From: Patagioenas fasciata
Lineage: Eukaryota; Chordata; Aves; Columbiformes; Columbidae
DNA: 64,000 nt
Assembly (NCBI RefSeq): GCF_037038585.1
Contig: NC_092520.1
Coordinates: 339,001-403,000 of the forward strand
Direction: 5' to 3'
The position numbers and the translations under genes were made by a program. The notes below the pieces were generated by a model. The model had not been told where the DNA came from and made no database searches. It saw nothing but the letters and a program-made list of their open reading frames with translations. Below, one piece after another: positions 3,801 to 61,968 of the stretch. Each line of letters opens with the position of its first letter. Within the stretch, counting starts at the first letter, position 1.

Positions 3801-6800
3801 CAGCGTCGTCATCAGCGGCTCCACGGACCGGACGCTCAAGGTGTGGAACGCGGACACGGGCGAGTGCGTGCACACGCTGTACGGGCACACGTCCACGGTG
3901 CGCTGCATGCACCTGCACGGGAACAGGTACGGGCGCCGGCGTCGGGCTGCTCCGTCCCGCAGGGGGCACAGGGAGGTGTGGGGGGCCTGGGCCTGTCTGT
4001 GGTGGGGGCTGATGAGGAGGATGGGACAGACTTTTGAGCAGGGCCTGTTGTGACAGGACAAGGGGTGATGGGTTAAACTAAGGGAGGGAGATTGAGGCTG
4101 GATATAAGGAATTGTTGCCCTGAGGGTGGTGAGAGCCTGGCCCAGGTTGGGCAGAGAGGTGGTGGCTGAACCATCCCTGGAGACATCCCAGGCCAGGCTG
4201 GACGGGGCTCTGAGCACCCTGAGCTGGTGAAGATGTCCCTGTCATGGCAGGGGGGGCACTGGGGGGCTGGGACGGTCCCTTCAACCGAAACTGTTCTGTG
4301 ATAAGGGCGGGTGAAGGTGCAGAGGTGTCGGGGCTTGGGGCTTTGCAGCTGAAGCTGCTGTGCACGGTGTCCCCGGGATGGTGGGCTGGGGCCGCCCCGG
4401 GAAGCTCGCGTGTCGGGGGCGCCCGATGGGCTCCGAGCACGTCCTCGCCCGCAGGGTCGTGAGCGGCTCCCGGGACGCCACCCTGCGCCTGTGGGACATC
4501 GAGACGGGGCAGTGTCTGCACGTGCTGATGGGGCACGTGGCCGCCGTGCGCTGCGTGCAGTACGACGGGCACAAGGTGGTGAGCGGCGCCTACGACTACA
4601 CGGTGAAGGTGTGGGACCCCGAGAGCGAGAGCTGCACGCACACGCTGCAGGGGCACACGAACCGCGTCTACTCCCTGCAGGTGAGCCCTGCGCCCCTTCC
4701 TCCCGCCTGCGCCGCAGGGACACACGGACCGCGGGGACACACGGACCGCGGGGACACACGGACCGTGGGGACACACGGACTGGGTGGGACACACTGACTG
4801 TGCGGGACCCGCTCTGACCCCACATGCACACCACAGGAACATGCACGCATGGCACAGGAACACACGCACCACAGGGACACACTGCGCGGGACACACGGAC
4901 TGCAGGGACACACAGACCGGGTGGGACCCGCTCTGACCCCACACGCACGCTGCAGGGACACAGATGCACCCTGCAGGGACACGCACACCACAGGGACACG
5001 CACACCTGCGTTAGGCTGGGGCTCAGTCTCCCCTGGGTTAGGCCGGGGCTCAGTCCCCCCTGGGTTAGGCCGGGGCTCAGTCCCCCCTGAGTTAGGCAGG
5101 GGCTCAGTCTCCCCTGAGTTAGGCAGGGGCTCAGTCTCCCCTGAGTTAGGCAGGGGCTCAGTCTCCCCTGGGTTAGGCAGGGGCTCAGTCTCCCCTGGGT
5201 TAGGCCGGGGCTCAGTCCCCCCTGAGTTAGGCAGGGGCTCAGTCTCCCCTGGGTTAGGCCAGGGCTCAGTCTCCCCTGGGTTAGGCCGGGGCTCAGTCCC
5301 CCCTGAGTTAGGCAGGGGCTCAGTCTCCCCTGGGTTAGGCCGGGGCTCAGTCCCCCCTGGGTTAGGCCGGGGCTCAGTCCCCCCTGGGTTAGGCAGGGGC
5401 TCAGTCTCCCCTGGGTTAGGCCGGGGCTCAGTCCCCCCTGAGTTAGGCAGGGGCTCAGTCTCCCCTGGGTTAGGCCGGGGCTCAGTCCCCCCTGAGTTAG
5501 GCAGGGGCTCAGTCTCCCCTGGGTTAGGCCGGGGCTCAGTCCCCCCTGGGTTAGGCCGGGGCTCAGTCTCGCCTGAGTTAGGCAGGGGCTCAGTCCCCCC
5601 TGGGTTAGGCCAGGGCTCAGTCCCCCCTGGGTTAGGCCGGGGCTCAGTCTCCCCTGGGTTAGGCCAGGGCTCAGTCCCCCCTGAGTTAGGCCGGGGCTCA
5701 GTCTCCCCTGGGTTAGGCCGGGGCTCAGTCCCCCCTGGGTTAGGCCGGGGCTCAGTCCCCCCGGGTTAGGCCGGGGCTCAGTCTCCCCTGGGTTAGGCCG
5801 GGGCTCAGTCCCCCCTGGGTTAGGCCGGGGCTCAGTCTCCCCTGGGTTAGGCCGGGGCGCAGTCCCCCCTGGGTTAGGCCGGGGCTCAGTCCCCCCTGGG
5901 TTAGACCCGTTTACAGCCTGGCCAGATCGGCTGTGGTCCTTATAACGTGGTCCAGTATTTTCTCCTTTGTTCAGGACCCCGTTTATTGCCGGGGTCCCAC
6001 CCCCTGCCCCATAGCCCGGGAGGTGAAGTCACCTGTCCCAGCTGGGGAGGATGTGACTGGCAGCTCTGGGTACGTGGGGACAGGGACAGTGGGGCACGGC
6101 GGGTGCCATGAGCCACCAGCTGCCCATTGAGAGTCCCGGGTCTCATCGGGGGTGTGCAGCTGTGTCTGTGGCAGTTTGGGGGTCCCACACGTGCCACAGG
6201 TGCTGCTCTATGGCAGTTTGGTGGTCCCACACGTGCCACGGGCGCTGCTCTATGGCAGTTTGGTGGTCCCACACGTGCCACGGGCGCTGCTCTATGGCAG
6301 TTTGGTGGTCCCACGCGTGCCACGGGCGCTGCTCTATGGCAGTTTGGTGGTCCCACGCGTGCCGTGGGTGCTGCTCTATGGCAGTTTGGGGGTCCCACAC
6401 GTGCCGTGGGCGCTGCTCTATGGCAGTTTGGTGGTCCCACGCGTGCCGTGGGTGCTGCTCTATGGCAGTTTGGTGGTCCCACGCGTGCCGTGGGTGCTGC
6501 TCTATGGCAGTTTGGTGGTCCCACACGTGCCGTGGGTGCTGCTCTATGGCAGTTTGGTGGTCCCACGCGTGCCACGGGCGCTGCTCTATGGCAGTTTGGT
6601 GGTCCCACGCGTGCCACGGGCGCTGCTCTATGGCAGTTTGGTGGTCCCACACGTGCCACGGGCGCTGCTCTGTGGCAGTTTGGTGGTCCCACACGTGCCG
6701 TGGGCGCTGCTCTATGGCAGTTTGGTGGTCCCACGCGTGCCACGGGCGCTGCTCTATGGCAGTTTGGTGGTCCCACACGTGCCGTGGGTGCTGCTCTATG

Positions 6801-7795
6801 GCAGTTTGGTGGTCCCACGCGTGCCACGGGCGCTGGTTGTGTCTCCGCAGTTCGACGGGACCCACATCGTGAGCGGCTCCCTGGACACGTCCATCCGCGT
6901 GTGGGACGTGGAGAGCGGGAACTGCCTGCACACGCTCATGGGGCACCAGTCGCTCACCAGCGGCATGGAGCTCCGCGACAACATCCTGGTGTCCGGCAAC
7001 GCCGACTCCACCGTCAAGATCTGGGACATCAAGACGGGGCAGTGCCTGCAGACGCTGCAGGGTGAGTGCGGGACGGCGCCGCAGACGGATGTGGCGTCAC
7101 GGCCAGATGTGGCGTCACGGCCAGATGTGGTGTCACGGCCAGATGTGGTGTCACGGCCAGGTGTTGCAGCACAGCCAGATGTGGCAGCACAGGGCAGATG
7201 TGGCAACACAGCCAGATGTGGCGGTGCATGGGGAGATGTGGCGGCACAGCCAGATGTGGTGTCACGTGCAGATGCGCTGGCACAGCCAGATGTGGCGGTG
7301 CAAGGCAGATGTGGCGGCACACCCAGATGTGGCGGTGCAGGGCAGATGTGGCGGCACAGCCAGATGTGGTGTCACGTGCAGATGTGGCGGCACACCCCGA
7401 TGTGGCGGTGCAGGGCAGATGTGGCGGCACACCCCGATGTGGCGGTGCGGGCAGGTGTTCCCCGCGGCGGGTGCCTCTGAGCGCGCTGCAGGGGCCGCGG
7501 GACTGACGGACCGACCCCCCCTGCAGGGCCCAGCAAGCACCAGAGCGCCGTGACGTGCCTGCAGTTCAGCTCCAAGTTCGTGGTCACCAGCTCCGACGAC
7601 GGCACCGTCAAGCTCTGGGACCTCAAGACGGGCGAGTTTGTGCGCAACCTGGTGGCGCTGGAGAGCGGGGGCAGCGGGGGCGTCGTGTGGCGCATCCGCG
7701 CCTCCAACACCAAGCTGGTGTGCGCCGTGGGCAGCCGCAACGGCACGGAGGAGACCAAGCTGCTGGTGCTGGACTTCGACGTGGACCTGAAGTGA
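875..7795 (+). CDS. FBXW7-like F-box/WD40 protein (5'-partial, 7 exons)
   Basis: Exons are 875-1009, 1087-1347, 3247-3360, 3745-3926, 4455-4680, 6851-7061 and 7527-7795 (stop TGA 7793-7795). All introns are GT-AG and phases match, giving 465 codons. The protein aligns end to end with the C-terminal part of vertebrate FBXW7: the dimerisation segment (ALDELID), the F-box ([15 protein letters not shown]), then eight WD40 blades ending in [15 protein letters not shown]7 is the substrate receptor of an SCF ubiquitin ligase that binds phosphodegrons. The three degron-binding arginines of human FBXW7 (R465, R479, R505) are present in [18 protein letters not shown] and [10 protein letters not shown]. 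Vertebrate FBXW7 is nearly invariant, yet this copy differs at many sites, such as [14 protein letters not shown] for IDSCEPTQVKHMMQ. I therefore infer a second paralogue rather than the FBXW7 orthologue. Upstream exons lie left of the window. No break is seen. Confidence 0.93.
2030..2997 (+). repeat. 39-40 bp minisatellite in FBXW7-like intron 2
   Basis: About 24 near-identical head-to-tail units sit in the 1.9-kb intron between the F-box exon and the first WD40 exon. Each contains GGGGCTCAGTCCTGCTCCGC followed by TGGGGCTGTGCAG. Two versions alternate, ending in ACCATT or GCTCATT. The rest of the intron (1348-2029, 2998-3246) is unique GC-rich sequence without a recognisable gene. Confidence 0.9.
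4021..4303 (+). mobile_element. CR1 LINE, 3'-end fragment
   Basis: The text GGGCCTGTTGTGACAGGACA, then ATTGAGGCTGGATATAAGGA, and an end in CTGTTCTGTGAT match the 3' tail of bird CR1 retroposons, which finish in short ATTCTRTG-type repeats and lack poly(A). It is a 5'-truncated copy inside an FBXW7-like intron. It stands out as less GC-rich than its surroundings. Confidence 0.85.
5022..5904 (+). repeat. 27-bp minisatellite in FBXW7-like intron 5
   Basis: About 33 units of 27 bp, each built as GGGTTAGGC(C/A)GGGGCTCAGT followed by CYCCCCT. The unit length is divisible by three, so the array stays open in all three forward frames. It contains TTAGGC words but is interstitial and has a longer unit, so it is not a telomere. 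Confidence 0.92.
6168..6838 (+). repeat. 42-bp minisatellite ending just before an FBXW7-like acceptor
   Basis: Sixteen units of 42 bp carry GCAGTTTGGTGGTCCCAC, then ACGTGCC, then GGGCGCTGCTCTATG. The last unit lies 12 bp before the acceptor CTCCGCAG (6843-6850), so the array replaces most of the usual branch-point region. Confidence 0.92.
7078..7455 (+). repeat. 18-bp and longer GATGTGGCG arrays in the last FBXW7-like intron
   Basis: Tandem GATGTGGCGTCACGGCCA-like units of about 18 bp give way to longer composite units built from the same words. The array fills most of the 465-bp intron between the last two exons. Confidence 0.85.
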
Positions 7796-11574: not shown

Positions 11575-11835
11575 ACGGGGCTCCATCATCTCCCACGGTC
11601 CCTCTCGGGCTCCCCCTTCCGCGGGTCCCTCTCGGGCTCCATCTCCCGCGGGTCCCTCTCGGGCTCCCCCTCCCGCGGGTCCCTCTCGGGCTCCATCTCC
11701 CGCGGGTCCCTCTCGGGCTCCATCTCCCGCGAGTCCCTCTCGGGCTCCCCCTCCCGCGGGTCCCTCTCGGCTCCATCTCCCGCGGGTCCCTCTCGGCTCC
11801 ATCTCCCGTGGGTCCCTCTCGAGCGCCCCCTCCCG
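11575..11835 (+). repeat. 27-bp minisatellite in the SMPD1 5' flank
   Basis: About nine units containing TCCCGCGGGTCCCTCTCGGG then CTCC. The array lies 75 to 335 bp before the SMPD1 start codon and so probably overlaps its promoter or 5' UTR. No TATA box is visible nearby. Confidence 0.88.
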
Positions 11836-16200: not shown

Positions 16201-19113
16201 TGGGGTGGGGTGCAGGGGGGGCGGGGTTCAGGGCGGGCGGGGGTCGCGGGGAGGGCTGGGGTGGGGTGCAGGGGGTCCGGGCAGCGCTCACCGCCCGTCC
16301 CCGCAGGGCCGGCGGGTTCTACGCGGCGCAGGTGTGGCCGGGGCTGCGCGTCGTGTCCCTCAACATGAACTTCTGCTCCCAGGCCAACTTCTGGCTGCTC
16401 ATCAACGCCACGGACCCCGCGGGGCAGCTGCAGTGGCTCGTGGGGGTCCTGGCGGCCGCCGAGCGCGCGGGGGAGAAGGTGAGCGGGGGGCTGGCTCGGG
16501 GTCCCGGCTCGGGGGTCCCGGGGGTCCCGCCACCCGCAGCCCCCAACCTCCGCTCCCCAGGTGCACATCATCGGGCACATCCCCCCCGCGCACTGCCTGC
16601 GCAGCTGGAGCTGGAACTACTACAGGATCGTGAGCAGGTCAGCGCCGGCCGCCGGCAGGCACCGGCCCCTGGGCCACGCACCAGCCCCACACCACGCACC
16701 GGCCCCTGGGCCACGCACCAGCCCCACACCACGCACCGGCCCCTGGGCCACGCACCAGCCCCACACCACGCACCGGCCCCTGGGCCACGCACCAGCCCCA
16801 CACCACGCACCAGCCCCACACCAGGCATCAGCCCCACACCACACACCGGCCCCACACCACGCACCAGCCCCTGGGCCACGCACCAGCCCCACACCACGCA
16901 CCAGCCCCACACCAGGCATCAGCCCCACACCACACACCGGCCCCACACCACGCACCAGCCCCACACCACGCACCAGCCCCTGGGCCACGCACCAGCCCCA
17001 CACCACGCACCGGCCCCTGTGCCACGCACTGCCCCCGCGCCACGCACCGGCCACGCACCACGCACCGGCCCCACACCACACACCGGCCCCACACCAGGCA
17101 TCAGCCCCACACCACGCACCAGCCCCACACCATGCATCAGCCCCACACCATGCATCAGCCCCACACCACGCACCAGCCCCACACCACGCACCAGCCCCAC
17201 ACCATGCATCAGCCCCACACCACACACCAGCCCCTGCGCCACGCACCAGCCCCCACGCCCACCGGCCCTGTGCCTCACACCGGCCCCCGCGCCCCCTGGC
17301 CTGCTCACCGGCCCCGCCGCTCTGCCCGGGCCACAGCAGCAGCAGAGGGGACGGGGGGACAGTTCCGTGCCAGAGGGGCTGGACCCAAAACTGCTGTGCC
17401 GGGCTGCGCCAGAGAGGGGGCGCGGGAGGATGGAGCTGGCGCTGGTGGGCATGGCCGGGATGTGTGGAGGCAGCGGAGCCCAGCGTGACGGGGATGGCGG
17501 GGATGGGACCGGCTGCACCGCGGGGACGGGGCAGCACCGGGATGGGGGCAGCACCGGGATGGGGGCAGCACCGGGATGGGGGCAGCACCGGGATGGGGGC
17601 AGCAACGGGATCGGGGCAGCACCGGGATGGGGGCAGCACCGGGATGGGGGCAGCACCGGGATGGGGCAGCACCGGGATGGGGCAGCACCGGGATGGGGGC
17701 AGCAACGGGATCGGGGCAGCACCGGGATGGGGCAGCACCGGGATGGGGGCAGCAACGGGATGGGGCAGCAACGGGATGGGGCAGCACCGGGATGGGGGCA
17801 GCAACGGGATGGGGGCAGCAACGGGATGGGGCAGCACCGGGATGGGGGCATCACCGGGACGGGGGCAGCACCGGGATGGGGCAGCACCGGGATGGGGGCA
17901 TCACCAGGACGGGGGCAGCACCGGGATGGGGCATCACCGGGACGGGGGCAGCACCGGGATGGGGCATCACCGGGATGGGGCAGCACCGGGATGGGGGCAG
18001 CACTGGGATGGGGGCATCACCGGGATGGGGGCAGCACCGGGACGGGGGCAGCACCGGGATGGGGGCAGCAACGGGATGGGGCAGCACCGGGATGGGGGCA
18101 GCACCGGGATCGGGGCAGCACCGGGATGGGGGCAGCACCGGGATGGGGGCAGCATCGGGATGGGGCAGCACCGGGATCGGGGCAGCATTGGGATGGGGGC
18201 AGCACCGGGATGGGGCAGCACCGGGATGGGGGCAGCATCGGGATCGGGGCAGCATCGGGATGGGGCAGCACCGGGATGGGGGCAGCATCGGGATCGGGGC
18301 AGCACCGGGATGGGGCAGCACCGGGATGGGGGCAGCATCGGGATCGGGGCAGCACCGGGATGGGGCAGCACCGGGATGGGGGCAGCATCGGGATCGGGGC
18401 AGCATCGGGATGGGGGCAGCACCGCGGGGACGGGACGGGGGTCCCGGTGCCGATGTCCCTGTCACGCAGGTTTGAGGGCACCATCGCGGCTCAGTTCTTC
18501 GGGCACACGCACGTGGACGAGTTCGAGCTGTTCTACGACGAGGAGACGCTGGCCCGCCCGGTCTCCGTCGCCTTCGTGGCCCCGAGCGTCACCACCTACA
18601 TCAACCTCAACCCCGGTGCGCCCCCTCCCACCGCCCCCGGCCGCGGTGCCGCCCCCTCCCCGCCCCCTCCCGCCGCGGTGCCGCCTCCTGACCCCCCCCG
18701 CAGGGTACCGCGTGTACGAGGTGGACGGGCCGTACCCCGGCAGCTCCGCGGCCGTGCTGGACCACGAGACCTTCATCCTGAACCTGACCGAGGCCAACGC
18801 GCCCGGCGCCGCCCCGCGCTGGCGGAGCCTCTACCGCGCCCGCGCCGCCTACGGGCTGCCCGCCGCCTCCCCCGCCGACTGGGACCGGCTGCTGCGCCGC
18901 TTCCAGGACGACGAGCGCCTGTTCCAGCGCTTCTGGTTCCACCTGCACAAGGGGCACCCGCCCCGCGAGCCCTGCGGGGCCGCCTGCAAGGCCGCGCTGC
19001 TCTGCGCGCTGCGCACCGGGCGCTCCGCCGACCCCGCGCTCTGCCGCCCGCTGCGCCCCGCGCTGCCCTTCGCGCGCGTCCTGCGGCTCTGGCGCCAGCG
19101 CCGGCTCTGCTGA
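11910..19113 (+). CDS. SMPD1: Acid sphingomyelinase (sphingomyelin phosphodiesterase 1)
   Basis: Six GT-AG exons: 11910-12152, 13587-14347, 16307-16478, 16561-16637, 18470-18615 and 18704-19113; 602 aa. The enzyme cleaves sphingomyelin to ceramide and phosphocholine in lysosomes or after secretion. A Leu/Ser/Pro-rich signal peptide (about residues 12-47) is followed by a saposin-B domain starting at C66 and C69. The calcineurin-type phosphoesterase domain keeps all expected zinc ligands: D183 and H185 (LTDLHWD), D251 (WTGDIPAHD), N291 (VGNHE), H398 (HIIGHIPP), H430 and H432 ([10 protein letters not shown]). The C-terminal cysteine of the human enzyme, which tunes its activity, is also kept (RRLC then stop). 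The start at 11910 has a strong context (GGCCATGG) and fits the human length. An in-frame upstream ATG at 11808 lies in repeat DNA and is not favoured. The frame is intact and the C-terminal domain is very Arg/Ala-rich, reflecting local GC bias. Confidence 0.96.
12160..12360 (+). repeat. GGGACA-rich simple repeats in SMPD1 intron 1
   Basis: Short degenerate runs of GGGACACGGGACAGGGAC type, with a second patch at 12515-12560 just before a CR1 insertion. No coding signal. Confidence 0.65.
12562..13200 (-). mobile_element. CR1 LINE, reverse orientation, 3' end
   Basis: The + strand begins ATCACAGAATCACAGAACCC, the reverse complement of a CR1 3' terminus. It continues with CATCCAGTGCAATCCCCCAT, CCCCTTGTCCTGTCACTGGT and CTCAGCCTTTCCTCACACGG, ending near 13200. 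It is a 5'-truncated insertion in SMPD1 intron 1, antisense to the gene, with no intact frame. Confidence 0.93.
13195..13278 (+). repeat. (GGGACA)n microsatellite
   Basis: About eight perfect GGGACA hexamers with flanking AGGACAGCACAGGAC variants, abutting the 5' end of the antisense CR1 copy. Confidence 0.85.
13300..13468 (+). mobile_element. Possible decayed CR1 3' fragment
   Basis: The phrase GGGCTGGAACCGGCTCCC and the ending GACGTTCTGTGGTTCTGTGG resemble a CR1 3' tail in + orientation, but the match is weak and short. It lies about 120 bp before SMPD1 exon 2. Confidence 0.4.
14380..15100 (+). repeat. About 60-bp G-rich minisatellite after SMPD1 exon 2
   Basis: About 12 units containing GGCACAGGGGGCTCGGGGCT, GGGGTTTGGGCTCGCAGGGC and CTGGGGGGCTCAGAGC. 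It starts about 30 bp after the exon 2 donor (GT 14348). Confidence 0.9.
15280..16275 (+). repeat. 56-57 bp G-run minisatellite before SMPD1 exon 3
   Basis: About 15 good units after a degenerate lead-in, each with GCGGGGGTCGCGGGGAGGGC, TGGGGTGGGGTGCAGG and GGCGGGGTTCGGGGCGG. Every unit has several runs of three or more G on the sense strand. The last unit ends about 30 bp before the acceptor at 16301-16306. Confidence 0.9.
16660..17275 (+). repeat. 19-bp CCACACCACGCACCAG minisatellite in SMPD1 intron 4
   Basis: About 30 units reading GCCCCACACCACGCACCAG, with CCCCTGGGCCACGCACC variants. It begins about 20 bp after the exon 4 donor at 16638. Confidence 0.9.
17528..18425 (+). repeat. 17-18 bp GCAGCACCGGGATGGGG minisatellite in SMPD1 intron 4
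   Basis: About 50 units of GCAGCACCGGGATGGGG(G), with AACGGG, ATCACC and ATCGGGATCGG variants. It fills the intron up to about 45 bp before the acceptor at 18468-18469. The 250 bp between this and the preceding array (17276-17527) are unique and hold no recognisable gene. Confidence 0.92.
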
Positions 19114-19830
19114 GCCGGATGGGTGCTGGGTCCGCTGAGCCGGATGGGCGCTGGGTCCGCTGAGCCGGATGGGTGCTGGGTCCGCTGAGCCGGATGGGCG
19201 CTGGGTCCGCTGAGCCGGATGGGTGCCGGGTCTGCTGAGCCGGATGGGCGCTGGGTCCGCTGAGCCGGATGGGTGCTGGGTCCGCTGAGCCGGATGGGTG
19301 CTGGGTCTGCTGAGCCGGATGGGTGCTGGGTCCGCTGAGCCGGATGGGTGCCGGGTCCGCTGAGCCGGATGGGTGCCGGGTCTGCTGAGCCGGATGGGTG
19401 CCGGGTCTGCTGAGCCGGATGGGCGCTGGGTCTGCTGAGCCGGATCGGTGCTGGGTCCACTGAGCCAGATCAGCACCAGCTCTGCTGAGCTGGACGAGCG
19501 CCAGTTCTGCTGAGCTGGGACCAGCGCCGGCTCTGCTGAGCAGGATCGGTCCTGGTTCTGCTGAGCTGGGACCAGCACCGGCTCTGCTGAGCGGGATCGG
19601 TGCTGGCTCTGTTGAGCTCGGACCAGCACTGGATCCGCTGAGCCAGATCAGCGCTGGTTCTGCTGAGCCAGTTCAGCACCAACTCTGCTGAGCTGGGACC
19701 AGCGCCGGCTCTGCTGAGCTAGATCAGTGCTGGTTCTGCGGAGCTAGATCAGCACCAGCTCTGCTTGACCAGGATCATCGCTGACTCAGCTGAGCTGGGA
19801 TCAGCGCCGGCTCTGCTGAGCCGGGCCCAG
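19106..19830 (+). repeat. 25-bp minisatellite that starts at the SMPD1 stop codon
   Basis: About 13 regular units of 25 bp (TGAGCCGGATGGGTGCTGGG then TCCGC), then degenerate copies to about 19830. The first unit begins with the SMPD1 stop TGA at 19111, so the last codons and the stop belong to the repeat phase. The array forms most of the 3' UTR. Confidence 0.9.
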
Positions 19831-20624: not shown

Positions 20625-23600
20625 TCACGGCGTCTGGGCCCCCAGGCGCTTGGGCTTCAGGGTGCCCAGCAGGGTCTGCACGCCCCGGCGCACCGAGGAG
20701 CCCACCCGCCGCGCCACCGAGTCCGCGGGGGGCGCGGGGAGGCAGGAGCTGGAGGCCTGGGGCCGCGCGTCCAGGCACTTCTGGTAGCGCAGCTGCGGAG
20801 GGGACAGCGTGGGGGACACGTGTGGGGCTGGGGACACGGTGTGGAGCTGGGCAGGGTCCATGGGGGCTCACTCACCATGCAGGTCTATGGGGCAGGGCGC
20901 TCTGTGGGGCAGGGGGCTCTGTGGGGCAGGAGGGGCTCTGTGGGACAGGGGCTCATGGGGCCACTCACCATGCAGGTCTATGGGGTAGGGTCTATGGGGC
21001 AGGGCCCATGGAGCTCACCATGCAGGTCTATGGGGTGGGGTCTATGGGGTGGGGTCTCTATGGGGCAGAGTCCGTGGGGCTCACCATGCAGGTCTATGGG
21101 GCAGGGTCTATGGGGCAGGGTCTACGGGGCGGGGTCCGTGGGGCTCACCATGCAGGTCTATGGGGTGGGGTCTATGGGGCAGGGTCTATGGGGCGGGGTC
21201 CGTGGGGCTCACCATGCAGGTCTATGGGGTGGGGTCTATGGGGCAGGGTCTATGGGGCGGGGTCCATGGGGCTCACCATGCAGGTCTATGGGGTGGGGTC
21301 TATGGGGCAGGGTCCGTGGGGCGGGGTCCGTGGGGCTCACCATGCAGGTCTATGGGGTGGGGTCTCTATGGGGCGGGGTCCGTGGGGCTCACCATGCAGG
21401 TCTACGGGGTGGGGTCTCTATGGGGCAGGGTCCGTGGGGCTCACCATGCAGGTCTATGGGGTGGGGTCTCTATGGGGCAGGGTCCGTGGGGCTCACCATG
21501 CAGGTCTACGGGGTGGGGTCTCTATGGGGCAGGGTCCGTGGGGCTCACCATGCAGGTCTATGGGGTGGGGTCTCTATGGGGCAGGGTCCGTGGGGCTCAC
21601 CATGCAGGTCTATGGGGTGGGGTCTCTATGGGGCGGGGTCCGTGGGGCTCACCATGCAGGTCTATGGGGTGGGGTCTCTATGGGGCGGGGTCCGTGGGGC
21701 TCACCATGCAGGTCTATGGGGTGGGGTCTCTATGGGGCGGGGTCCGTGGGGCTCACCATGCAGGTCTACGGGGTGGGGTCCCTATGGGGCGGGGTCCGTG
21801 GGGCTCACCATGCAGGTCTATGGGGTGGGGTCTCTATGGGGCGGGGTCCGTGGGGCTCACCATGCAGGTCTATGGGGTGGGGTCTCTATGGGGCGGGGTC
21901 CGTGGGGCTCACCATGCAGGTCTATGGGGTGGGGTCCCTATGGGGCGGGGTCCGTGGGGCTCACCATGCAGGCCGCCTGCAGCGCCTCGCTGAGCCCCGC
22001 GGCGTTGGGCTCGCACCAGACCATGTGGCAGCGGAAGGCGCCGGGCGCGCCGGCCATGATGAAGGCGAAGGAGCGCACGTCGCGGCCCACGCCCATGAAC
22101 GACAGGAAGCGCACGCGGCACTCGCACAGCACGGCCTCGCTCTGCGGCGCGGGACGGCCACCGTCAGCACCGCAGGACGGGGGACACGGTCACCGCCACG
22201 GGACGGGACGGGGGACACGGGGACGGCCACCGTCACCACCACGGGACGGGGGACACGGTCACCGCCACGGGACGGGATGGGGGACACAGGGACGGCCACC
22301 GTCACCACCACGGGACGGGGGACACGGTCACCGCCATGGGACGGGACGGGGGACATGGGGACAGTCACCGTCACCACCGTGGGACGGGGGACACGGTCAC
22401 CGCCACGGGACGGGGGACACGGTCACCGCCATGGGACGGGACGGGGGACACGGGGACGACCACTGTCAGCACCGCGGGACGGGGGACACGGTCACCGCCA
22501 TGGGACAGGATGGGGGACATGGGGACGGCCACTGTCACCACCACGGGACGGGGGACACGGTCACCGCCATGGGACGGGGGTCACAGTCACCGCCATGGGA
22601 CAGGACAGGGGTCACAGGGACCGTCACCGTCACCACCACGGGATAGGACAGGGGACATGGGGACAGTCACAGTCACCACCATGGGATGGGGGGACACGGG
22701 GACGGTCACGGTCACCGCCATGGGATGGGACGGGGGGACACGTGGACAGCCACCGTCACCACCGCAGGACAGTGGACACAGGGACGGTCACGGTCACCAC
22801 CACGGGACGGGGGTCACGGCCATGGGATGGGGGACATGGGGATGGTCATGGTTACCACCGTGGGATGGGGGACATGGGGATGGTCACGGTCACTGCCATG
22901 GGACGGGGGGACACAGGGGCATGGGGACGTGGTCACGGTCACAGGACAGGACAGGGGGACACGGGGACGCAGTCACAGCCACGGGACAGGGGGACACAGG
23001 GACGGTCACGGTCACTGCCATGGGACGGGGACGGGGATGGGGCGGGGGGCGCGCGGGGCACCCACCTGCTGGTGCGTGATGGTGAGCGTGGCGGGCGCCA
23101 CGTTGACCACGATGGGCGTCCAGTGGTCCCGGCTGCCGCCCGCCAGCGCCGCCTCCAGCGCCGCGTTGATGACGTCCATGCCTGGGGCCGGGGGTCGGGG
23201 GGATGGGGGTCAGGGACGCCGGGGGTCAGGGACACCCGACCCCAGCTGGGACCCTCGGCTGGGCCCCCCGGCCCCGCACTCACCCACGGGCTTGGCCACG
23301 GGCACGCAGCCCAGGTAACACACCGGGAACTTCTGCACCACCTCGCTCTTGGGCGCCGGGAACTCCACTGCGGCAACGGCGGGGTCAGGGCTGCGCCGGC
23401 ACCGCGGCCACCGGCGCACAGCACCGTGCTCCCAGCACCGTGCTCCCCGCGCCCAGCACCGTGCTCCCCACGCCCAGCACCGTGCTCCCCTCGCCCAGCA
23501 CCGTGCTCCCCACACCCAGCACCGTGCTCCCCTCACCCAGCACCGTGCTCCCCTCGCCCAGCACCGTGCTCCCCTCGCTCAGCACCGTGCTCCCCACACC

Positions 23601-26600
23601 CAGCACCGTGCTCCCCGCGCCCGGCACCGTGCTCCCCTCGCCCAGCACCGTGCTCCCCGCGCCCAGCACCGTGCTCCCCGCGCCCGGCACCGTGCTCCCC
23701 ACACCCAGCACCGTGCTCCCCTCACCCAGCACCGTGCTCCCCTCACCCGGCACCGTGCTCCCCACGCCCAGCACCGTGCTCCCCTCGCCCGGCACCGTGC
23801 TCCCCGCGCCCGGCACCGTGCTCCCCTCGCCCAGCACCGTGCTCCCCACGCCCAGCACCGTGCTCCCCGCGCCCGGCACCGTGCTCCCCTCGCCCGGCAC
23901 CGTGCTCCCCGCGCCCGGCACCGTGCTCCCCGCGCCCAGCACCGTGCTCCCCTCGCTCAGCACCGTGCTCCCCGCGCCCAGCACCGCGGCCACCGGCACC
24001 CGGCACCGTGCTCCCCTCACCCGGCACCGTGCTCCCCGTGCCCAGCACCGTGCTCCCCACACCCAGCACCGTGCTCCCCGCACCCGGCACCGTGCTCCCC
24101 ACACCCAGCACCGTGCTCCCCGCGCCCAGCACCGCGGCCACCGGCACCCGGCACCATGCTCCCCGCACCCGGCACCGTGCTCCCCGCACCCAGCATCATG
24201 TTCCCCGCACTCAGCACCACAGCCACCGGTGCCCAGCACCATGTTCCCCGCACCCAGCACCGTGTTCCCCATGCCTGGCACCGTGTTCCCCACACCCAGC
24301 ACCGTGCTCCCCGCGCCCGGCACCGTGCTCCCCGCACCCAGCACCGTGTTCCCCATGCCTGGCACTGTGTTCCCCGCGCCCGGCACCGCACCCCACACGA
24401 CGGCAGCACCGCATCCACCGCTCCCCACGCCACCTCTGCACCCAGCACCGCGCCAGCACCGCAACCCCCAGCACCCCACCCCATGCCCTGGAATGGGGTC
24501 CCCCCAGCCCCCCAAAGCCTGTACCCATGCCCTGGAACAGGACCCCCCAGCCCCCCACACCATTTCCTGGAACAGGACCCCCCCACAGAACCCCCATCCC
24601 CTACCCTGGAACGGGACCCCACCCCCCATCCCCTACCCTGGAACGGGACCCCACCCCCCATCCCCTACCCTGGAACGGGACCCCACCCCCATCCCCTACC
24701 CTGGAACGGGACCCCCCGCGCCATCCCCTACCCTGGAACGGGACCCCACCCCCATCCCCTACCCTGGAACGGGACCCCACCCCCCATCCCCTACCCTGGA
24801 ACGGGACCCCCCGCGCCATCCCCTACCCTGGAACGGGACCCCACCCCCATCCCCTACCCTGGAACGGGACCCCACCCCCCATCCCCTACCCTGGAACGGG
24901 ATCTCCACCAGCCGCGCCGGGTCCGTGCTCAGCCCGTTGGGCCCCCCCCGGGCGCTCCTCCGCTCCACCATGATCTGGGGGAGCACGGGGGCACCAGCCC
25001 CCCCGGCCATCACACCACGGCCCCGGAACCCTGCCCCACGGGGACGGGGGGACCCGGGAACAGAGCTCGGAGCTGGGGGGACACAGGGGCTCAGTGGGCA
25101 GCTGGGGGCACTGGGGGGCACTGGGGGTCTGAGGTCCCAGTCTCACCTGGGCCCACACCTCGTGCAGGCTGCTGGCACTGGGGGGCACTGGGGGGTCTCG
25201 GGGGCTCACCTGCGCGCACACCTCGTGCAGGCTGCTGGCACTGGGGGGCACTGGGGGTCTCGGGGGCTCACCTGCGCGCACACCTCGTGCAGGCTGCTGG
25301 CACTGGGGGGCACTGGGGGTCTCGGGGGCTCACCTGCGCGCACACCTCGTGCAGGCTGCTGGCACTGGGGGGCACTGGGGGTCTCGGGGGCTCACCTGCG
25401 CGCACACCTCGTGCAGGCTGCTGGCACTGGGGGGCACTGGGGGTCTCGGGGGGCTCACCTGCGCGCACACCTCGTGCAGGCTGCTGGCCCTGGGGGGCAC
25501 TGGGGGTCTCGGGGGCTCACCTGCGCGCACACCTCGTGCAGGCTGCTGGCACTGGGGGGCACTGGGGGTCTCGGGGGCTCACCTGCGCGCACACCTCGTG
25601 CAGGCTGCTGGCCCTGGGGGGCACTGGGGGTCTCGGGGGCTCACCTGCGCGCACACCTCGTGCAGGCTGCTGGCACTGGGGGTCTCGGGGGGCTCACCTG
25701 CGCGCACACCTCGTGCAGGCTGCTGGCACTGGGGGGCACTGGGGGTCTCGGGGGCTCACCTGCGCGCACACCTCGTGCAGGCTGCTGGCACTGGGGGTCT
25801 CGGGGGGCTCACCTGCGCGCACACCTCGTGCAGGCTGCTGGCGATGTTCCTGGCCGGGCTCTCGCAGCGGAACACGTGGCACTTGAGCATCTGCGTCAGC
25901 GGGTCCCGCGCCACGAACGCGAAGTCCCTGCGGGGGGGCAGCGCTCAGGACCCCCCACCCCAGCCCCCGAGCTCCCACCGCCCCGCGGCCCCAGCGCCAC
26001 CCAGCACTGGGAGCGCCGGCAGCACCGGGAGCGCTGGCAGCACCGGGAGCGCCGGCAGCGCTGGTGCAGGTTCCCCTACCTCTCCCTGCGTCCGGCAGCG
26101 CGGCAGAGAGACCAGAGACCCAGTTAGAGGGGACAGTGCGACCCACGGACCCCAGACCCACAGACCCCACAGACCACAGCCCCACAGACCCCAAAAACTC
26201 CAGACCCTAGCCCCACAGACCCCACAGACCCCAGCTCCACAGACCACAGACCCACGGATCCCACAGATCACAGCCCCGCAGACCCCACAGACCATAGCCC
26301 CACAGACCCTACAGACCCTACAGACCCCATAGACCCCACAGCCCCACAGACCACACAGAGCACACAGACTTCACAGCCCCACGGACCCCACAGACCATGT
26401 GCACCTCGACCCCCACGCCCCTGCCCCCACGTGCCCGGTACCGCACCCTCGCCCCCCGGGTGCACCCACGGCCCCACCCACGCGCCCACCTGCCGCTGTC
26501 GCGCCCCACGCCCCAGACGCGGATGGCGGCCACGGGCTGCGCGTGCAGCAGCGCCTGCTCCTGCGGCTCCAGCAGCTTCAGCGTCCGGTTCTCCAGCAGC

Positions 26601-29600
26601 AGCAGCATCGCGCGGCCCTGGGGGCGTCAGGGGGCACTGCGGGGGGGGCGGCGCAGGGGAGCAGCGCGGGGAGCGGCGCGGGGGGGCAGCGGGGGCAGTG
26701 TAGGGGGGGCAGTGCGAGGGAGCAGCGCGGGGGGCGGTGTTGGGGGGTAGACAGCAGGGGCACTGCGGGGGGGCACTGCGGGGGCACTGCGGGGGCACTG
26801 CGGGGTGCAGTGCGGGGGGCAGTGCGCGGGGTTAGTGTGGGGGTGCAGTGCGGAGGGCAGTGCGCGGGGGTAGTGTGGGGGTGCAGTGCGGGGGGCAGTG
26901 CGCGGGGGTAGTGTGGGGGGGCAGTGCGGGGGGGCAGTGCGCGGGGGTAGTGGGGGGGGCAGTGCGGGGGGGCAGTGTAGGGGGCAGTGTGGGGGGGGCA
27001 GCGTAGGGGGGCAGTGCGCGGGGGTAGTGTGGGGGGGCAGTGCGGGGGGCAGTGTGGGGGGCAGTGCGGGGGGGGCAGTGTAGGGGCAGTGTGGGGGGGG
27101 CAGCGTAGGGGGGCAGTGCGCGGGGGTAGTGCGGGGGGCAGTGCGGGGGGCAGTGTGGGGGGCAGTGCGGCGGGGGGCAGCGCGAGGGGGCAGCGCGGGG
27201 GGGCAGTGCGGGGGGCAGTGCGGGGGGCAGTGCGGGGGGGGGCAGCGCGGGGGGGGGCAGCGCGAGGGGGCAGCGCGGGGGGCAGCGCGGGGGGCAGTGT
27301 GTGGGGGGCAGCGCGGGGGGCAGCGCGGGGGGGCAGCGGCGCTCACCTCCCCGCAGGGCCCGCGCTGGTGCAGCGAGAGCTGCCGGATGCAGTTGTTCAC
27401 GGCCGCGCTGCTGCGCCCCGGGGCCAGCTCGTCCTCGCTCATCTCCACCCAGCCCAGCGAGCGCACGGCGAAGCGCTGCGGGACGTGTGGGGCACGCGTG
27501 GGGCACGGGGGACGGGTGGGGCACGCGTGGGGCACGCACAGCCCCCCCGCAGGGACCCCCCGCAGCTGCCTGCCCCACACGTCCCTGAGCCTGGGGACAG
27601 GGCTGACCCCCCCATGGCGGTGCCGGAAGCACCACAGGGGTCCCAGGCTGCACCCATGGGGGTCCCAGGCTCACCCATGGGGGTCCCAGGCTGCACCCAT
27701 AGGGGTTCCAGGCTGCACTCATGGGGGTCCCAGGCTGCACCCATAGGGGTCCCACGCTGCACCCAGGGGTTTCCAGGCTGCACCCCATGGGGGTCCCAGG
27801 CTGCACCAGGGGGGTCCCAGGCTCACCCATGGGGGTCCCAGGCTGCACCCATAGGGGTCCCAGGACGTACCCATGGAGGTCCCAGGCCGCACCCATAGGG
27901 GTCCCAGGCTGTACCCATGGGGGTCCCAGGCTGTACCCATGGAGGTCCCAGGCTGCACCACGGGGGTCCCAGGCTGTACCCATGGGGGTCCCAGACTGCC
28001 CCGGCGGGGTCCCAGGTCCCCCGGCAGCGGGACAGAGCCCGGCCTGTGGGGCAGTGGCACGCAAGGGGCCCCACGGGGGTCTGGCTGGGCCAGGCCTACC
28101 TTAGAGCCCGGCTTGTCCTCCTCGGCCAGCGCGGTCCTGAGAAGGGACGGGGACGTCACGGCTGCCCCCCCACACCCCACCCCCGGGGGTCCCAGCCCGG
28201 ACCCCACGCACCCCCACCCCCACCCCCGGGGGTCCCAGCCCGGACCCCACGCACCCCCACCCCCCCGGGGGTGGACCCCACGCACCCCCCGCCTGGCGAG
28301 GCCGGGCCCGGGGACGGCGGCTCCGCGTCCTGCGCCCCGGGGTCGTCGTCCTCGTCCTCCGCGGGGTCCTGGGGAGGGACGAGCTGGGGGAGCTGCCCCG
28401 CCCCCTCACCCTGCAGAGCCCCCCGACCACCCCGACCCCCATTCCCCCCCCGTGCCCCACTGCTCACCTTCCAGACCCCCCATTCCCCCCCCTGTGCCCC
28501 CATTGCTCACCCTCCAGAGCCCCCCATTCCCCCCGTGCCCCACTGCTCACCTTCCAGAGCCCCCCATTCCCCCCGTGCCCCACTGCTCACCTTCCAGAGC
28601 CCCCCATTCCCCCCGTGCCCCACTGCTCACCCTCCAGAGCCCCCCATTCCCCCCGTGCCCCACTGCTCACCCTCCAGAGCCCCCCATTCCCCCCGTGCCC
28701 CACTGCTCACCTTCCAGAGCCCCCATTCCCCCCGTGCCCCACTGCTCACCTTCCAGAGCCCCCCATTCCCCCCGTGCCCCACTGCTCACCTTCCAGAGCC
28801 CCCCATTCCCCCCGTGCCCCACTGCTCACCCTCCAGAGCCCCCCATTCCCCCCGTGCCCCACTGCTCACCTTCCAGAGCCCCCCATTCCCCCCGTGCCCC
28901 ACTGCTCACCTTCCAGAGCCCCCCATTCCCCCCGTGCCCCACTGCTCACCCTCCAGAGCCCCCCATTCCCCCCGTGCCCCACTGCTCACCTTCCAGAGCC
29001 CCCCATTCCCCCCGTGCCCCACTGCTCACCTTCCAGAGCCCCCCATTCCCCCGTGCCCCACTGCTCACCTTCCAGAGCCCCCCATTCCCCCCGTGCCCCA
29101 CTGCTCACCCTCCAGAGCCCCCCATTCCCCCCGTGCCCCACTGCTCACCTTCCAGAGCCCCCCATTCCCCCCGTGCCCCACTGCTCACCTTCCAGAGCCC
29201 CCCATTCCCCCCGTGCCCCACTGCTCACCTTCCAGAACTCCCCCTCTCCGAAGTGCTCGGCTGGGGCGAAGCCGGGCCAGGCCAGCTGGGGAGAGCGGTT
29301 CCGGTTCGGGGTGCACAGCGGGGCAGCCCCGCACCCCGGGGACCCCACAGACCCACACCATGGGGATCCCCACAGCCCCGCACCCCGGGGTCCCCACAGA
29401 CCCACAGCCTGGGGATCCCCACAGCCCCACGCCCCGGGGTCCCCACAGACCCACAGCCTGGGGATCCCCACAGCCCCGCACCCCGGGGTCCCCACAGACC
29501 CACAGCCTGGGGATCCCCACAGCCCCGCACCCCGGGGTCCCCACAGACCCACAGCCTGGGGATCCCCACAGCCCCGCACCCCGGGGTCCCCACAGACCCA

Positions 29601-60500: not shown

Positions 60501-61968
60501 GAGGACACAGGGAGGCCATGGGGACACAGTGGGGGCACAGGGAGCCCCGTGGGCACCGCGGGGATGCAGTGGGGATGCAGTGGGGATGCAGTGGGGATGC
60601 AGTGGGGATGCGGTGGGGATGCAGTGGGGATGCAGTGGGGATGCAGTGGTGCTGGGGACACAGCAGGTCACGGGAGGGACACGCCAGGGACACAGTGGGG
60701 ATGTGCAGGTGCAGTGGTGCAGTGGTGCAGGGGATGCAGTGGGTGCAGTGGGTGCAGCGGGTGCAGCGCTGTGTGCAGGGGTGCAGGGGATGCAGTGGGT
60801 GCAGTGAGTGCAGTGCTGTGTGCAGGGGTGCAGGGGATGCAGTGGGTGCAGTGGGTGCAGTGCTGTGTGCAGGGGTGCAGGGGATGCAGTGGGTGCAGCG
60901 CTGTGTGCAGGGGTGCAGGGGTGCAGGGGATGCAGTGAGTGCAGTGCTGTGTGCAGGGGTGCAGGGGATGCAGTGGGTGCAGTGCTGTGTGCAGGGGTGC
61001 AGGGGATGCAGTGGGTGCAGCGCTGTGTGCAGGGGTGCAGGGGTGCAGGGGATGCAGTGGGTGCAGTGCTGTGTGCAGGGGTGCAGGGGATGCAGTGGGT
61101 GCAGTGAGTGCAGTGCTGTGTGCAGGGGTGCAGGGGTGCAGTGGATGCAGTGAGTGCAGTGCTGTGTGCAGGGGTGCAGGGGATGCAGTGGGTGCAGCGC
61201 TGTGTGCAGGGGTGCAGGGGCACGAGGCTGTGTGCAGGGCTGCATGCGGGGGTACAAAGGTGCAGGGCTGTTTGTGGGGGTGCAGGGGTACAGGGTTACG
61301 GGGGTGCGGGGCTATGGGGGTACCCCACCTCCCGCAGAAGGTGTGCGGGCACGGCAGCACCTCGGGGCTGTGTGCAGGGGTACGGGGTGCAGGGGTGCAG
61401 GGATATGGGGGTACAGGGTTATGGGGTGCAGGGTACCCCACCTCTCGCAGAAGGTGTGCAGGCACGGCAGCACCTCGGGGCTGTGTGCAGGGTTATGGGG
61501 TGTGGGGATGCAGGGTTAAGGGGTGTGGGGATGCAGGGTTAAGGGGTGTGGGGATGCAGGGTTAAGGGGTGTGGGGATGCAGGGTTATGGGGTGTGGGGA
61601 TGCAGGGTTAAGGGGTGTGGGGATGCAGGGTTAAGGGGTGTGGGGATGCAGGGTTATGGGGTGTGGGGATGCAGGGTTAAGGGGTGTGGGGATGCAGGGT
61701 TAAGGGGTGTGGGGATGCAGGGTTATGGGGTGTGGGGATGCAGGGTTAAGGGGTGTGGGGATGCAGGGTTAAGGGGTGTGGGGATGCAGGGTTATGGGGT
61801 GTGGGGATGCAGGGTTAAGGGGTGCGGGGTACCCCACCTCTCGCAGAAGGTGTGCAGGCACGGCAGCACCTTGGGGTTGCGGTAGCGGTCCAGGCAGATG
61901 CTGCACACCAGGAACTGCTGGTCGATCTGCCGCACCACCGGGCTGGCGCCGGCCTCGCGCCGCGCCAT
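48569..61968 (-). CDS. TRIM3: TRIM3, RING/B-box/coiled-coil/filamin/NHL ubiquitin ligase
   Basis: Eleven coding exons, 5' to 3': 61968-61838, 58146-57915, 56959-56808, 56744-56564, 54932-54209, 53472-53369, 52644-52477, 52414-52246, 50902-50832, 50221-50081, 48721-48569; 741 aa (human 744), all GT-AG, phases consistent. TRIM3 (BERP) is a RING E3 ligase linked to synaptic and endosomal trafficking. The C3HC4 RING is complete (C22, C25, C37, H39, C42, C45, C59, C62); the B-box starts at CCPNH (C115, H118). A coiled coil spans roughly 150-285, a filamin-type domain about 315-420 ([31 protein letters not shown]), then six NHL blades from about 475 (GEFTNLQGI) to the C-terminus (FKAYRYLQ). The start ATG (GCCGCCATGG) aligns with the human one. 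An in-frame upstream ATG exists in exon 1. Human paralogue TRIM2 is a less good match at the RING exon. Confidence 0.96.
48765..49510 (-). repeat. CCCCATGGCCCYRTGTC array in the last TRIM3 intron
   Basis: Nested units (CCATGGCCCCCTATCCCC, GTGTCCCCATGGCCCTGTGT) make higher-order repeats of about 180 bp: 48780-48960 recurs at 48975-49140. Confidence 0.92.
49690..49960 (-). repeat. GGGATGGGGATGGGGACAGG array
   Basis: Six-bp-based GGGGAT and GGGACA units in the same TRIM3 intron. The remainder (49511-49689, 49961-50080) is unique. Confidence 0.9.
50235..50820 (-). repeat. GGGGTCAGCAYGGGGTCACC array
   Basis: Units of 9 to 13 bp (GGGGTCAGCACG, GGGGTCACCATG) fill the intron between the exons at 50902 and 50221. 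Confidence 0.92.
51000..51715 (-). repeat. Degenerate CCCAGAACC/GAGCCCAGAACC repeats
   Basis: Imperfect 6 to 12 bp units (AGCCCAGAACC, CCTGGAACCTGAG) in the intron between the exons at 52246 and 50902. It is notably less GC-rich than other arrays in the window. Confidence 0.8.
51715..52215 (-). repeat. CCCCATCCCAT array
   Basis: About 500 bp of CCCATC/CCCCATC units, some with CGCACCCC, ending 30 bp before the exon donor at 52245. Confidence 0.94.
52690..53330 (-). repeat. GGGGATGGGGA and GGGACAGGGATGG arrays
   Basis: GGGGATGGGGAG units (52725-52850) pass into GGATGGGGACAGGGATGG units. A block of about 120 bp at 52925-53035 recurs at 53045-53150. TRIM3 intron. Confidence 0.92.
53490..53995 (-). 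repeat. GGGACACCGGGACACGGGAC array
   Basis: Nine-bp units GGGACACYG with longer-order repeats. It fills most of the intron before the filamin-encoding exon at 54209; 53996-54208 is unique. Confidence 0.92.
54930..55850 (-). repeat. CATGGGGACACGGCACCGCG array
   Basis: Units of about 18 and 36 bp (GGGACACGGCACCGCG, GGGACAGAGCCACCAT) start immediately at the acceptor of the 724-nt exon. A diverged tail continues to about 56060. Confidence 0.93.
56190..56545 (-). repeat. GCATGGGGACAYGG array
   Basis: Units of 12 to 20 bp (CATGGGGACACGGTG, GCATGGGGACATGGGAC) in the same TRIM3 intron, ending about 15 bp from the donor at 56563. Confidence 0.9.
57000..57720 (-). repeat. About 35-50 bp CCCCATGAACCTGGGACCCC array
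   Basis: Units made of ACCCAGGACCCTGTGCCC and CCCCATGAACCTGGGACCCC in the intron between the B-box exon (56959) and the RING-end exon (57915). The part next to 57914 (57721-57914) is C-rich but unique. Confidence 0.9.
58160..60130 (-). repeat. GACGGACACACGGACGGGAT array in the large TRIM3 intron
   Basis: Composite units of about 75 to 120 bp built from 10-bp words (GGGACGGACG, ACACACGGAT) with a marker GGCTCAACCGCAGGA, decaying after 59660 into GGAGGGACAGATGGACA units. Sequence 60131-60430 is unique with no gene seen. Confidence 0.93.
60430..61240 (-). repeat. GATGCAGTGGG and GGTGCAGGGGATGCAG arrays
   Basis: A GGGGATGCAGT block (60545-60655) is followed by 40 to 50 bp units of GTGCTGTGTGCAGGGGTGCA and GGGGATGCAGTGGGTGCA (60700-61240). 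Confidence 0.92.
61321..61366 (-). repeat. First intronic copy of the TRIM3 RING exon tail plus donor
   Basis: On the - strand this reads GAGGTGCTGCCGTGC... into TTCTGCGGGAG then GTGGGGTA, a copy of the last 30-odd coding bases of the RING exon ([11 protein letters not shown]) and its splice donor. It has small changes (L to P, E to G in the would-be protein). It lies about 480 bp downstream of the real junction. Confidence 0.85.
61434..61480 (-). repeat. Second intronic copy of the TRIM3 RING exon tail plus donor
   Basis: Nearly identical to the true exon end at 61838-61877, including the donor GTGGGGTACC and the residues [11 protein letters not shown] on the - strand. The sequence upstream of the copy (CCCCGAGG) differs from the true exon. 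It is not a full exon. Confidence 0.88.
61490..61830 (-). repeat. 21-22 bp GGTTAAGGGGTGTGGGGATG array next to the RING exon donor
   Basis: About 16 units (GGTTAAGGGGTGTGGGGATG then CA, with TTATGG variants in every third unit) lie between the second exon-tail copy and the real donor at 61837. Confidence 0.94.

What the first reader, a model, noticed from the sequence alone, without database searches (positions are those of the whole stretch)
25140..25812. APBB1 PTB1 exon tail and its splice donor amplified 11 times in the intron
The 60-bp unit holds 29-30 coding bases ([10 protein letters not shown]) plus the donor, almost without change, directly after the real junction. Each copy is also preceded by a pyrimidine-rich stretch and AG (CCCCCCAG), so each unit has the layout of a 31-nt pseudo-exon that would shift the frame. 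Decoy donors of equal strength pose a real splicing question: is the first, last or a random copy used, and does this alter Fe65?
Basis: partly seen in the sequence, partly recalled or inferred. Interest (0 to 1): 0.85.

Follow-up and report, generated by a model that had tools for sequence, protein, structure and literature searches.

The report
Splice-site repeat array in FE65 intron
The end of a coding segment of the FE65 (APBB1) gene, with the signal that ends it, has been copied eleven more times into the neighbouring intron; this is a clean example of a bird-genome instability described in 2026 as exon stuttering, and using a spare signal in place of the real one would cut the protein short.

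Summary
On the minus strand, the last 30 bases of APBB1 (FE65) exon 8 plus its donor (CAG|GTGAGC, 25812) are followed by 11 more copies in units of 53-63 bp, down to 25146; ten keep the exon tail exactly, the last has drifted. It is not a singular event: tandem arrays cover about 80% of the 39 modelled introns, and 6 of 39 donors (5 in APBB1, one of them marginal, and 1 in TRIM3) but 0 of 39 acceptors have copies in their own intron. The array passes the published 'exon stuttering' screen (Hron et al. 2026, chicken). What differs is the place: 0.36 Mb from a telomeric end of a 216-Mb contig, not a dot chromosome. Small contigs C40 and C41 of the same genome show acceptor-side cases, so the donor bias is not general. 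Best reading: one tandem duplication across the exon border, expanded by slippage or unequal exchange, tolerated because the first donor still makes FE65. Splicing from any one of the 11 decoy donors gives a premature stop; repeat pseudo-exons shift the frame singly, though three together would restore it. Which donor is used needs RNA. New member of a known kind.

The parts
25813..25927 (-). APBB1 exon 8 of the model (second half of PTB1), 115 nt; its last 30 nt are the repeated coding part
   Evidence: gene model; PDB match across the junction; blastn-short exon positions 86-115 of 115
25811..25812 (-). real splice donor GT of intron 8 (CAG|GTGAGC)
25146..25788 (-). array of 11 extra copies of exon tail plus donor (decoy donors at 25759, 25697, 25644, 25582, 25520, 25458, 25395, 25333, 25271, 25209, 25146)
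24975..25145 (-). rest of intron 8 to the acceptor of exon 9
28467..29236 (-). intron 3 array: 19 decoys of exon-3 tail plus donor, unit about 40 bp (13 share 8 nt of exon tail, 6 are changed next to the donor and share 1 nt)
28211..28286 (-). intron 4: 2 copies of the donor neighbourhood, only 4 nt of exon (marginal)
24530..24901 (-). intron 9 array: 10 decoys at 16-mer level (9 at 20-mer level), nine with the 12-nt exon-9 tail, unit 31-32 bp; the tenth, 74 bp further, shares 8 nt and has GC in place of GT
20875..21972 (-). intron 12 array: 19 decoys of the 8-nt exon-12 tail plus donor at 16-mer level (17 at 20-mer level), unit 50-66 bp, last spacing 93
61328..61876 (-). TRIM3 exon-1 tail and two copies in intron 1 (39- and 35-nt hits) with donor

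Best explanation
This is exon stuttering: in a GC-rich stretch near a chromosome end, one tandem duplication whose left break lay 30 nt inside exon 8 and whose right break lay in the intron copied exon tail plus donor; slippage or unequal exchange then multiplied the unit to 12. The real exon was never interrupted, because extra copies lie downstream of the first donor and become intron. The first donor makes normal FE65; use of a decoy donor makes a message with a premature stop, presumably removed by nonsense-mediated decay. The array is a tolerated by-product. Shown: array, shared breakpoint, copies at other donors, gene identity, premature stops. Inferred: slippage or exchange, use of the first donor, decay.
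For: All 11 internal joins enter the exon at the same base (G then CCAGCAGCC), as one founding event predicts; the break shows GCC on both sides (read by eye). Copies at 6 of 39 donors, 0.00 expected from shuffles. Arrays with score at least 50 cover 80% of modelled intron bases and 3% of exon bases (76% and 1% at score 100). Same phenomenon in this genome's C40 and C41. Units of several lengths and two join types (AGTG 9, AGGG 2) stand in mixed order, as expected from exchange of one or more units. Eleven of 11 decoy donors give a premature stop. The last copy would encode EVWAQ where exon 8 has EVCAQ and 3d8d EICSK, as if free of coding constraint.
Against: No RNA and no reads were available, so copy number, allele variation and donor choice are unverified. 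Ten decoys with identical exon parts would also fit an assembly that multiplied copies, though the mixed unit types argue against plain duplication. The place, a macrochromosome-sized contig, is not the typical one (190 of 236 chicken cases lie on dot chromosomes). One 62-nt unit, folded as DNA on both strands, is no more stable than shuffles (z 1.17 and 0.37) and the array has no G4 motif on either strand, so structure-driven replication stress is not supported here. From recall, two equally strong donors in test genes often favour the downstream one, which speaks against easy use of the first.
Confidence: 0.82

Rival explanations
1. Poison-splice rheostat: decoy donors and the 31-nt pseudo-exons are used often enough that array length sets how much APBB1 message is destroyed or garbled, so FE65 level varies with array length between individuals.
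For: Ten of 11 decoy donors score at least as high as the real one, and all 11 give a premature stop. Pseudo-exon acceptors in 9 of 11 units score near the median of modelled ones. In human IFI6, repeat units are used as donors (passage in PMC4526556).
Against: No RNA. A harmful decoy would be expected to be purged or mutated, yet all 11 keep GTGAG. A single pseudo-exon does not bring an early stop, so that route need not trigger decay.
Confidence: 0.1
2. Assembly artefact: the assembler or polisher multiplied or collapsed a smaller or larger number of units.
For: 60% of the window lies in tandem repeats of score at least 100; the paper warns of technical variation in such introns. No reads available.
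Against: No N in the window; units of several kinds in mixed order; independent arrays at other donors with different units; raw nanopore reads confirmed the general structure of the same kind of array in chicken PHF8 (paper).
Confidence: 0.06
3. Functional, selected array: the multiple donors are kept because they recruit U1 and protect the exon or the transcript.
For: Exon tail and donor are identical in 10 decoys.
Against: Recent expansion explains identity equally. Most arrays here leave the donor out: of 30 introns of at least 200 nt with arrays, 4 have an array reaching over the donor. In the C40 case 4 of 6 decoy donors have lost the GT.
Confidence: 0.02

Closest known systems
Exon stuttering / sequence stuttering of avian genes (Hron et al. 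2026, Genome Biol Evol, PMC12954441; sections 7, 9 and 16 read whole, section 8 part 1 of 2, the rest by abstract and passages; supplements not seen)
   Same: Tandem copies of an exon edge with its splice site in the adjacent intron, GC-rich, introns filled by local repeats; 11 copies and 30 nt of exon lie inside its ranges (1-44 copies, 20-187 nt).
   Different: Near a telomeric end of a 216-Mb contig, not a dot chromosome (the paper counts 36 of 236 introns on macrochromosomes and, in the parts I read, does not say where on them). APBB1 has no occurrence in the main text. Three more APBB1 donor arrays carry only 8-12 nt of exon, below its 20-nt limit. Genome not chicken by size (chicken size recalled).
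Human IFI6 (6-16) minisatellite giving multiple splice donors (Turri et al. 1995; not held, seen only as a reference and through a passage in PMC4526556)
   Same: A tandem repeat at an exon end that supplies several donors.
   Different: There two downstream repeat units are used as donors and give isoforms (passage); here use is untested and every decoy donor gives a premature stop. The 12-bp unit of IFI6 is recalled.
Intron gain by tandem duplication of an exon segment holding AGGT (recalled)
   Same: Tandem copy that carries a donor.
   Different: Here the copies lie inside an existing intron; no new intron arises.

Membership tests
Exon stuttering (Hron et al. 2026) | Part of a coding exon (at least 20 nt, at least 42.1 bits by blastn-short) copied in the adjacent intron | tested here: met
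   11 hits of APBB1 exon 8 in intron 8, 46.1-60.0 bits. Screen of 44 exons against the introns (39 in all) of the same gene, plus strand only, hits of at least 20 nt: 13 pass, the other two being TRIM3 exon 1 in intron 1
Exon stuttering (Hron et al. 2026) | Copied piece touches the exon border (at most 1 base away in over 90% of cases) | tested here: met
   ten hits end at exon base 115 of 115; the eleventh, in the drifted copy, stops at base 108
Exon stuttering (Hron et al. 2026) | Direct tandem repetition in the adjacent intron | tested here: met
   spacing 53-63 bp, same orientation as the exon
Exon stuttering (Hron et al. 2026) | Intron length differs between individuals | not testable with these tools
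   one assembly, no reads
Exon stuttering (Hron et al. 2026) | Dot chromosome location (an association in the paper, not part of its definition: 46 of 236 introns lie elsewhere) | tested here: not met
   window is C1:339001-403000 of a 216,012,892-base contig that begins with telomere repeats
Exon stuttering (Hron et al. 2026) | Bird genome | tested here: inconclusive
   genome unnamed; 1.454 Gb, 216-Mb first contig, GC-rich contigs of about 4 Mb fit a bird
IFI6-type minisatellite with several used donors | More than one repeat donor found in mature mRNA | not testable with these tools
   no RNA data

The most novel reading that the evidence does not exclude
The array is a length-dependent brake on FE65: each added unit adds a donor about as strong as the real one whose use yields a premature stop, so a hypervariable, non-coding repeat would tune the dose of a brain protein between individual birds, with similar arrays at APBB1 introns 3, 9 and 12 acting at once.
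Probability: 0.08. Interest if true: 0.75.

Novelty: new member of a known kind. Interest (0 to 1): 0.42.

Why it matters
It places exon stuttering near the end of a macrochromosome-sized contig, with four well-supported donor arrays in one gene, three of them too short in exon sequence for the published screen. That suggests GC-rich, repeat-prone surroundings may matter more than dot-chromosome identity, and that the published count is low. A chain of 12 near-identical donors is also a natural test of how the spliceosome picks between equal sites.

Tried and rejected
Donor-only mechanism: in the window 6 of 39 donors and 0 of 39 acceptors have copies (Fisher p 0.025, but five of the six are in one gene and one is marginal). 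Rejected as general, because on C40 a HIF-alpha-like exon has 8 acceptor-side and 6 donor-side copies and on C41 a DAXX exon has one acceptor-side copy. Those two were picked by eye from the segments (and one), not from a systematic scan of L039-L042. Gaps between arrays and exons do not differ significantly between donor and acceptor sides (Wilcoxon p 0.22 and 0.65 at scores 50 and 100).

Fused dot chromosome or misjoin: not needed. The flank reads in order DCHS1, TPP1, TAF10, ILK, RRP8 (names by recall from translations), then FBXW7-like, SMPD1, APBB1, HPX, TRIM3, which fits human 11p15.4 from recall, and C1 starts with telomere repeats. Not proved.

G4 or hairpin as the driver: no G4 motif in the intron 8 array on either strand; introns 9, 3 and 12 have 8, 7 and 19, on one strand each; one unit folds no better than shuffles.

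An automatic exon finder on 200 kb upstream (72 segments) found copies at 0 of 39 donors and 0 of 46 acceptors evaluated; on L002-L006 one acceptor (L002) had a copy. On the window it found 3 of 25 donors, missing three curated ones, and gave one false acceptor of 26 (a misplaced AG), so its zeros are weak. The low-scoring matches (C39-C41, 65-70% identity) are GC-rich and mostly tandem repeat (0.39-0.92 of each locus) and are not taken as APBB1 copies.

I first read all repeat products as poison; a check showed that one pseudo-exon brings no early stop in the model and three restore the frame (56 triples have all introns of at least 60 nt), so that claim is now limited to decoy donors.

Papers: Turri 1995 is not held. 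Literature searches. The titles listed name no APBB1 exon stuttering, but one search listed 15 of 45 papers and one of them (PMC8428137, listing only) mentions APBB1 once in a chicken selection scan; supplements could not be read.

Full report
What is there. The minus strand of 25927-24975 holds APBB1 exon 8 (25927-25813) and intron 8. After the real donor at 25812 come 11 further copies of the exon tail and donor, the last donor at 25146. Ten decoys share exactly 30 nt of exon; unit lengths are 53, 62, 53, 62, 62, 62, 63, 62, 62, 62, 63. The eleventh decoy has two changes in the exon part and a different intron beyond it.

Gene identity and frame. I built exon models for five genes (44 exons, 39 introns; 5' parts of some genes are missing, and exon numbers are those of the models) from codon-bias segments, AG/GT borders, frame and recalled human proteins: FBXW7-like (best PDB match FBXW7, 591.6 bits for the first four exons), SMPD1 (by recall; Pfam Metallophos just below its cut-off), APBB1, HPX (Pfam Hemopexin) and TRIM3 (Pfam NHL; the name is recalled). 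Joining exons 6-9 at the first donor gives a protein that matches the APBB1 PTB1 structure without break at the junction (3d8d); PTB2 matches APBB1 at 219.1 bits against 152.7 for APBB2.

Not alone. Testing 20-mers across every modelled junction with up to 3 mismatches, 6 of 39 donors have copies in their own intron: APBB1 introns 3 (19), 4 (2), 8 (10), 9 (9), 12 (17) and TRIM3 intron 1 (2); acceptors 0 of 39; 20 shuffles of each intron gave a mean of 0.00 throughout. Intron 4 rests on 4 nt of exon and is marginal. Tandem arrays with score at least 50 cover 80% of modelled intron and 3% of exon bases, and arrays with score at least 100 cover 60% of the window.

Known phenomenon. Hron et al. 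2026 (PMC12954441) describe this in chicken as exon stuttering: copies of the lateral part of an exon with its donor or acceptor in the intron, which, they write, creates potential alternatively spliced transcripts; [quoted passage not shown] I reran its criterion (blastn-short, at least 20 nt, at least 42.1 bits, within each gene, plus strand): 13 hits pass, all in the adjacent intron: 11 for APBB1 exon 8 and 2 for TRIM3 exon 1; 6 distal hits all fail. The words splicing and RNA-seq do not occur in its main text, so donor choice seems not to have been tested there.

Place. The window is C1:339001-403000 of a 216-Mb contig that begins with telomere repeats. In 10-kb stretches GC is 0.50-0.65 at C1:139-279 kb (one stretch with 2,500 N aside) and 0.63-0.73 at 279-339 kb, 0.71 in the window; 2-kb samples give 0.56 at 60 kb, 0.71 at 450 kb, 0.46-0.64 at eight places from 0.55 to 3 Mb, and 0.34 at 50 Mb. 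So this is a GC-rich block near a chromosome end. Small contigs of the same genome (C40, C41, about 3.9 Mb each) show the same phenomenon: a HIF-alpha-like exon (best PDB match HIF3A, 60.5 bits) with 8 acceptor-side and 6 donor-side copies, and an exon next to a DAXX-matching one (the duplicated exon itself is assigned to DAXX by recall) with one acceptor-side copy.

What the decoys would do. On a recalled donor matrix 10 of 11 decoys score at least as high as the real donor. Exon 8 normally ends at residue 429. Use of the first decoy adds 53 nt and stops after 461 residues; use of any of the other ten, or retention of the intron, stops after 447. The stop lies at least 419 nt before the last exon junction in all 11, so decay is expected (the 50-55 nt rule is recalled). 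Five inserts (168, 354, 417, 603 and 666 nt) are multiples of three but still hold the stop. So no single decoy donor gives full-length FE65. Pseudo-exons of 31 nt exist in 11 of 11 units: one shifts the frame without a stop in the rest of the modelled coding sequence, two stop after 464 residues, three add 31 residues in frame.

How it arose. All 11 internal joins enter the exon at the same base, so one founding duplication, with a 3-base GCC shared at the break (by eye), followed by expansion; mixed unit classes point to exchange or slippage of one or more units. G4 motifs are absent from this array and folding of a unit is ordinary, so I do not claim structure as the cause. The expansion step itself is inferred.

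Splicing. I expect mostly the first donor, because it alone among single donors gives the conserved protein, but equal competing donors do not choose the first by rule (recalled), and in human IFI6 repeat donors are used (passage). This is the open and testable part.

Noticed in passing
L040 with L043 (C40:516001-528500, minus strand): HIF-alpha-like exon stuttered on both sides; 4 of 6 donor-side decoys have lost the GT (GGGAGT twice, GGGGGT, ATGAGT) while the 24 nt of exon tail shown stay identical, as if decoy donors were being disabled. The two alike may be one event.
   Followed up: partly
L041, about 3776-3967 (C41, minus strand): Exon head assigned to DAXX, with its acceptor, duplicated once, 148 bp apart.
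   Followed up: partly
19097-19821, + strand: A 25-bp array begins at the end of the SMPD1 coding sequence; the stop codon (19111-19113) lies in it, so the C-terminus borders a repeat.
   Followed up: no
42292, - strand: HPX intron 2 appears to start with a GC donor (CAG|GCACGG).
   Followed up: no
11598-11771, - strand: A 27-bp array is open in frame ([13 protein letters not shown] repeats); not known whether it is coding.
   Followed up: no
51525-51612, - strand: ARAGORN tRNA-Gln call lies inside a 45-bp array (51391-51634) and is probably spurious.
   Followed up: no
875-7795, + strand: An FBXW7-like F-box/WD40 gene next to SMPD1 and APBB1; from recall no such gene is at this place in human, so perhaps an ohnolog kept here.
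   Followed up: partly
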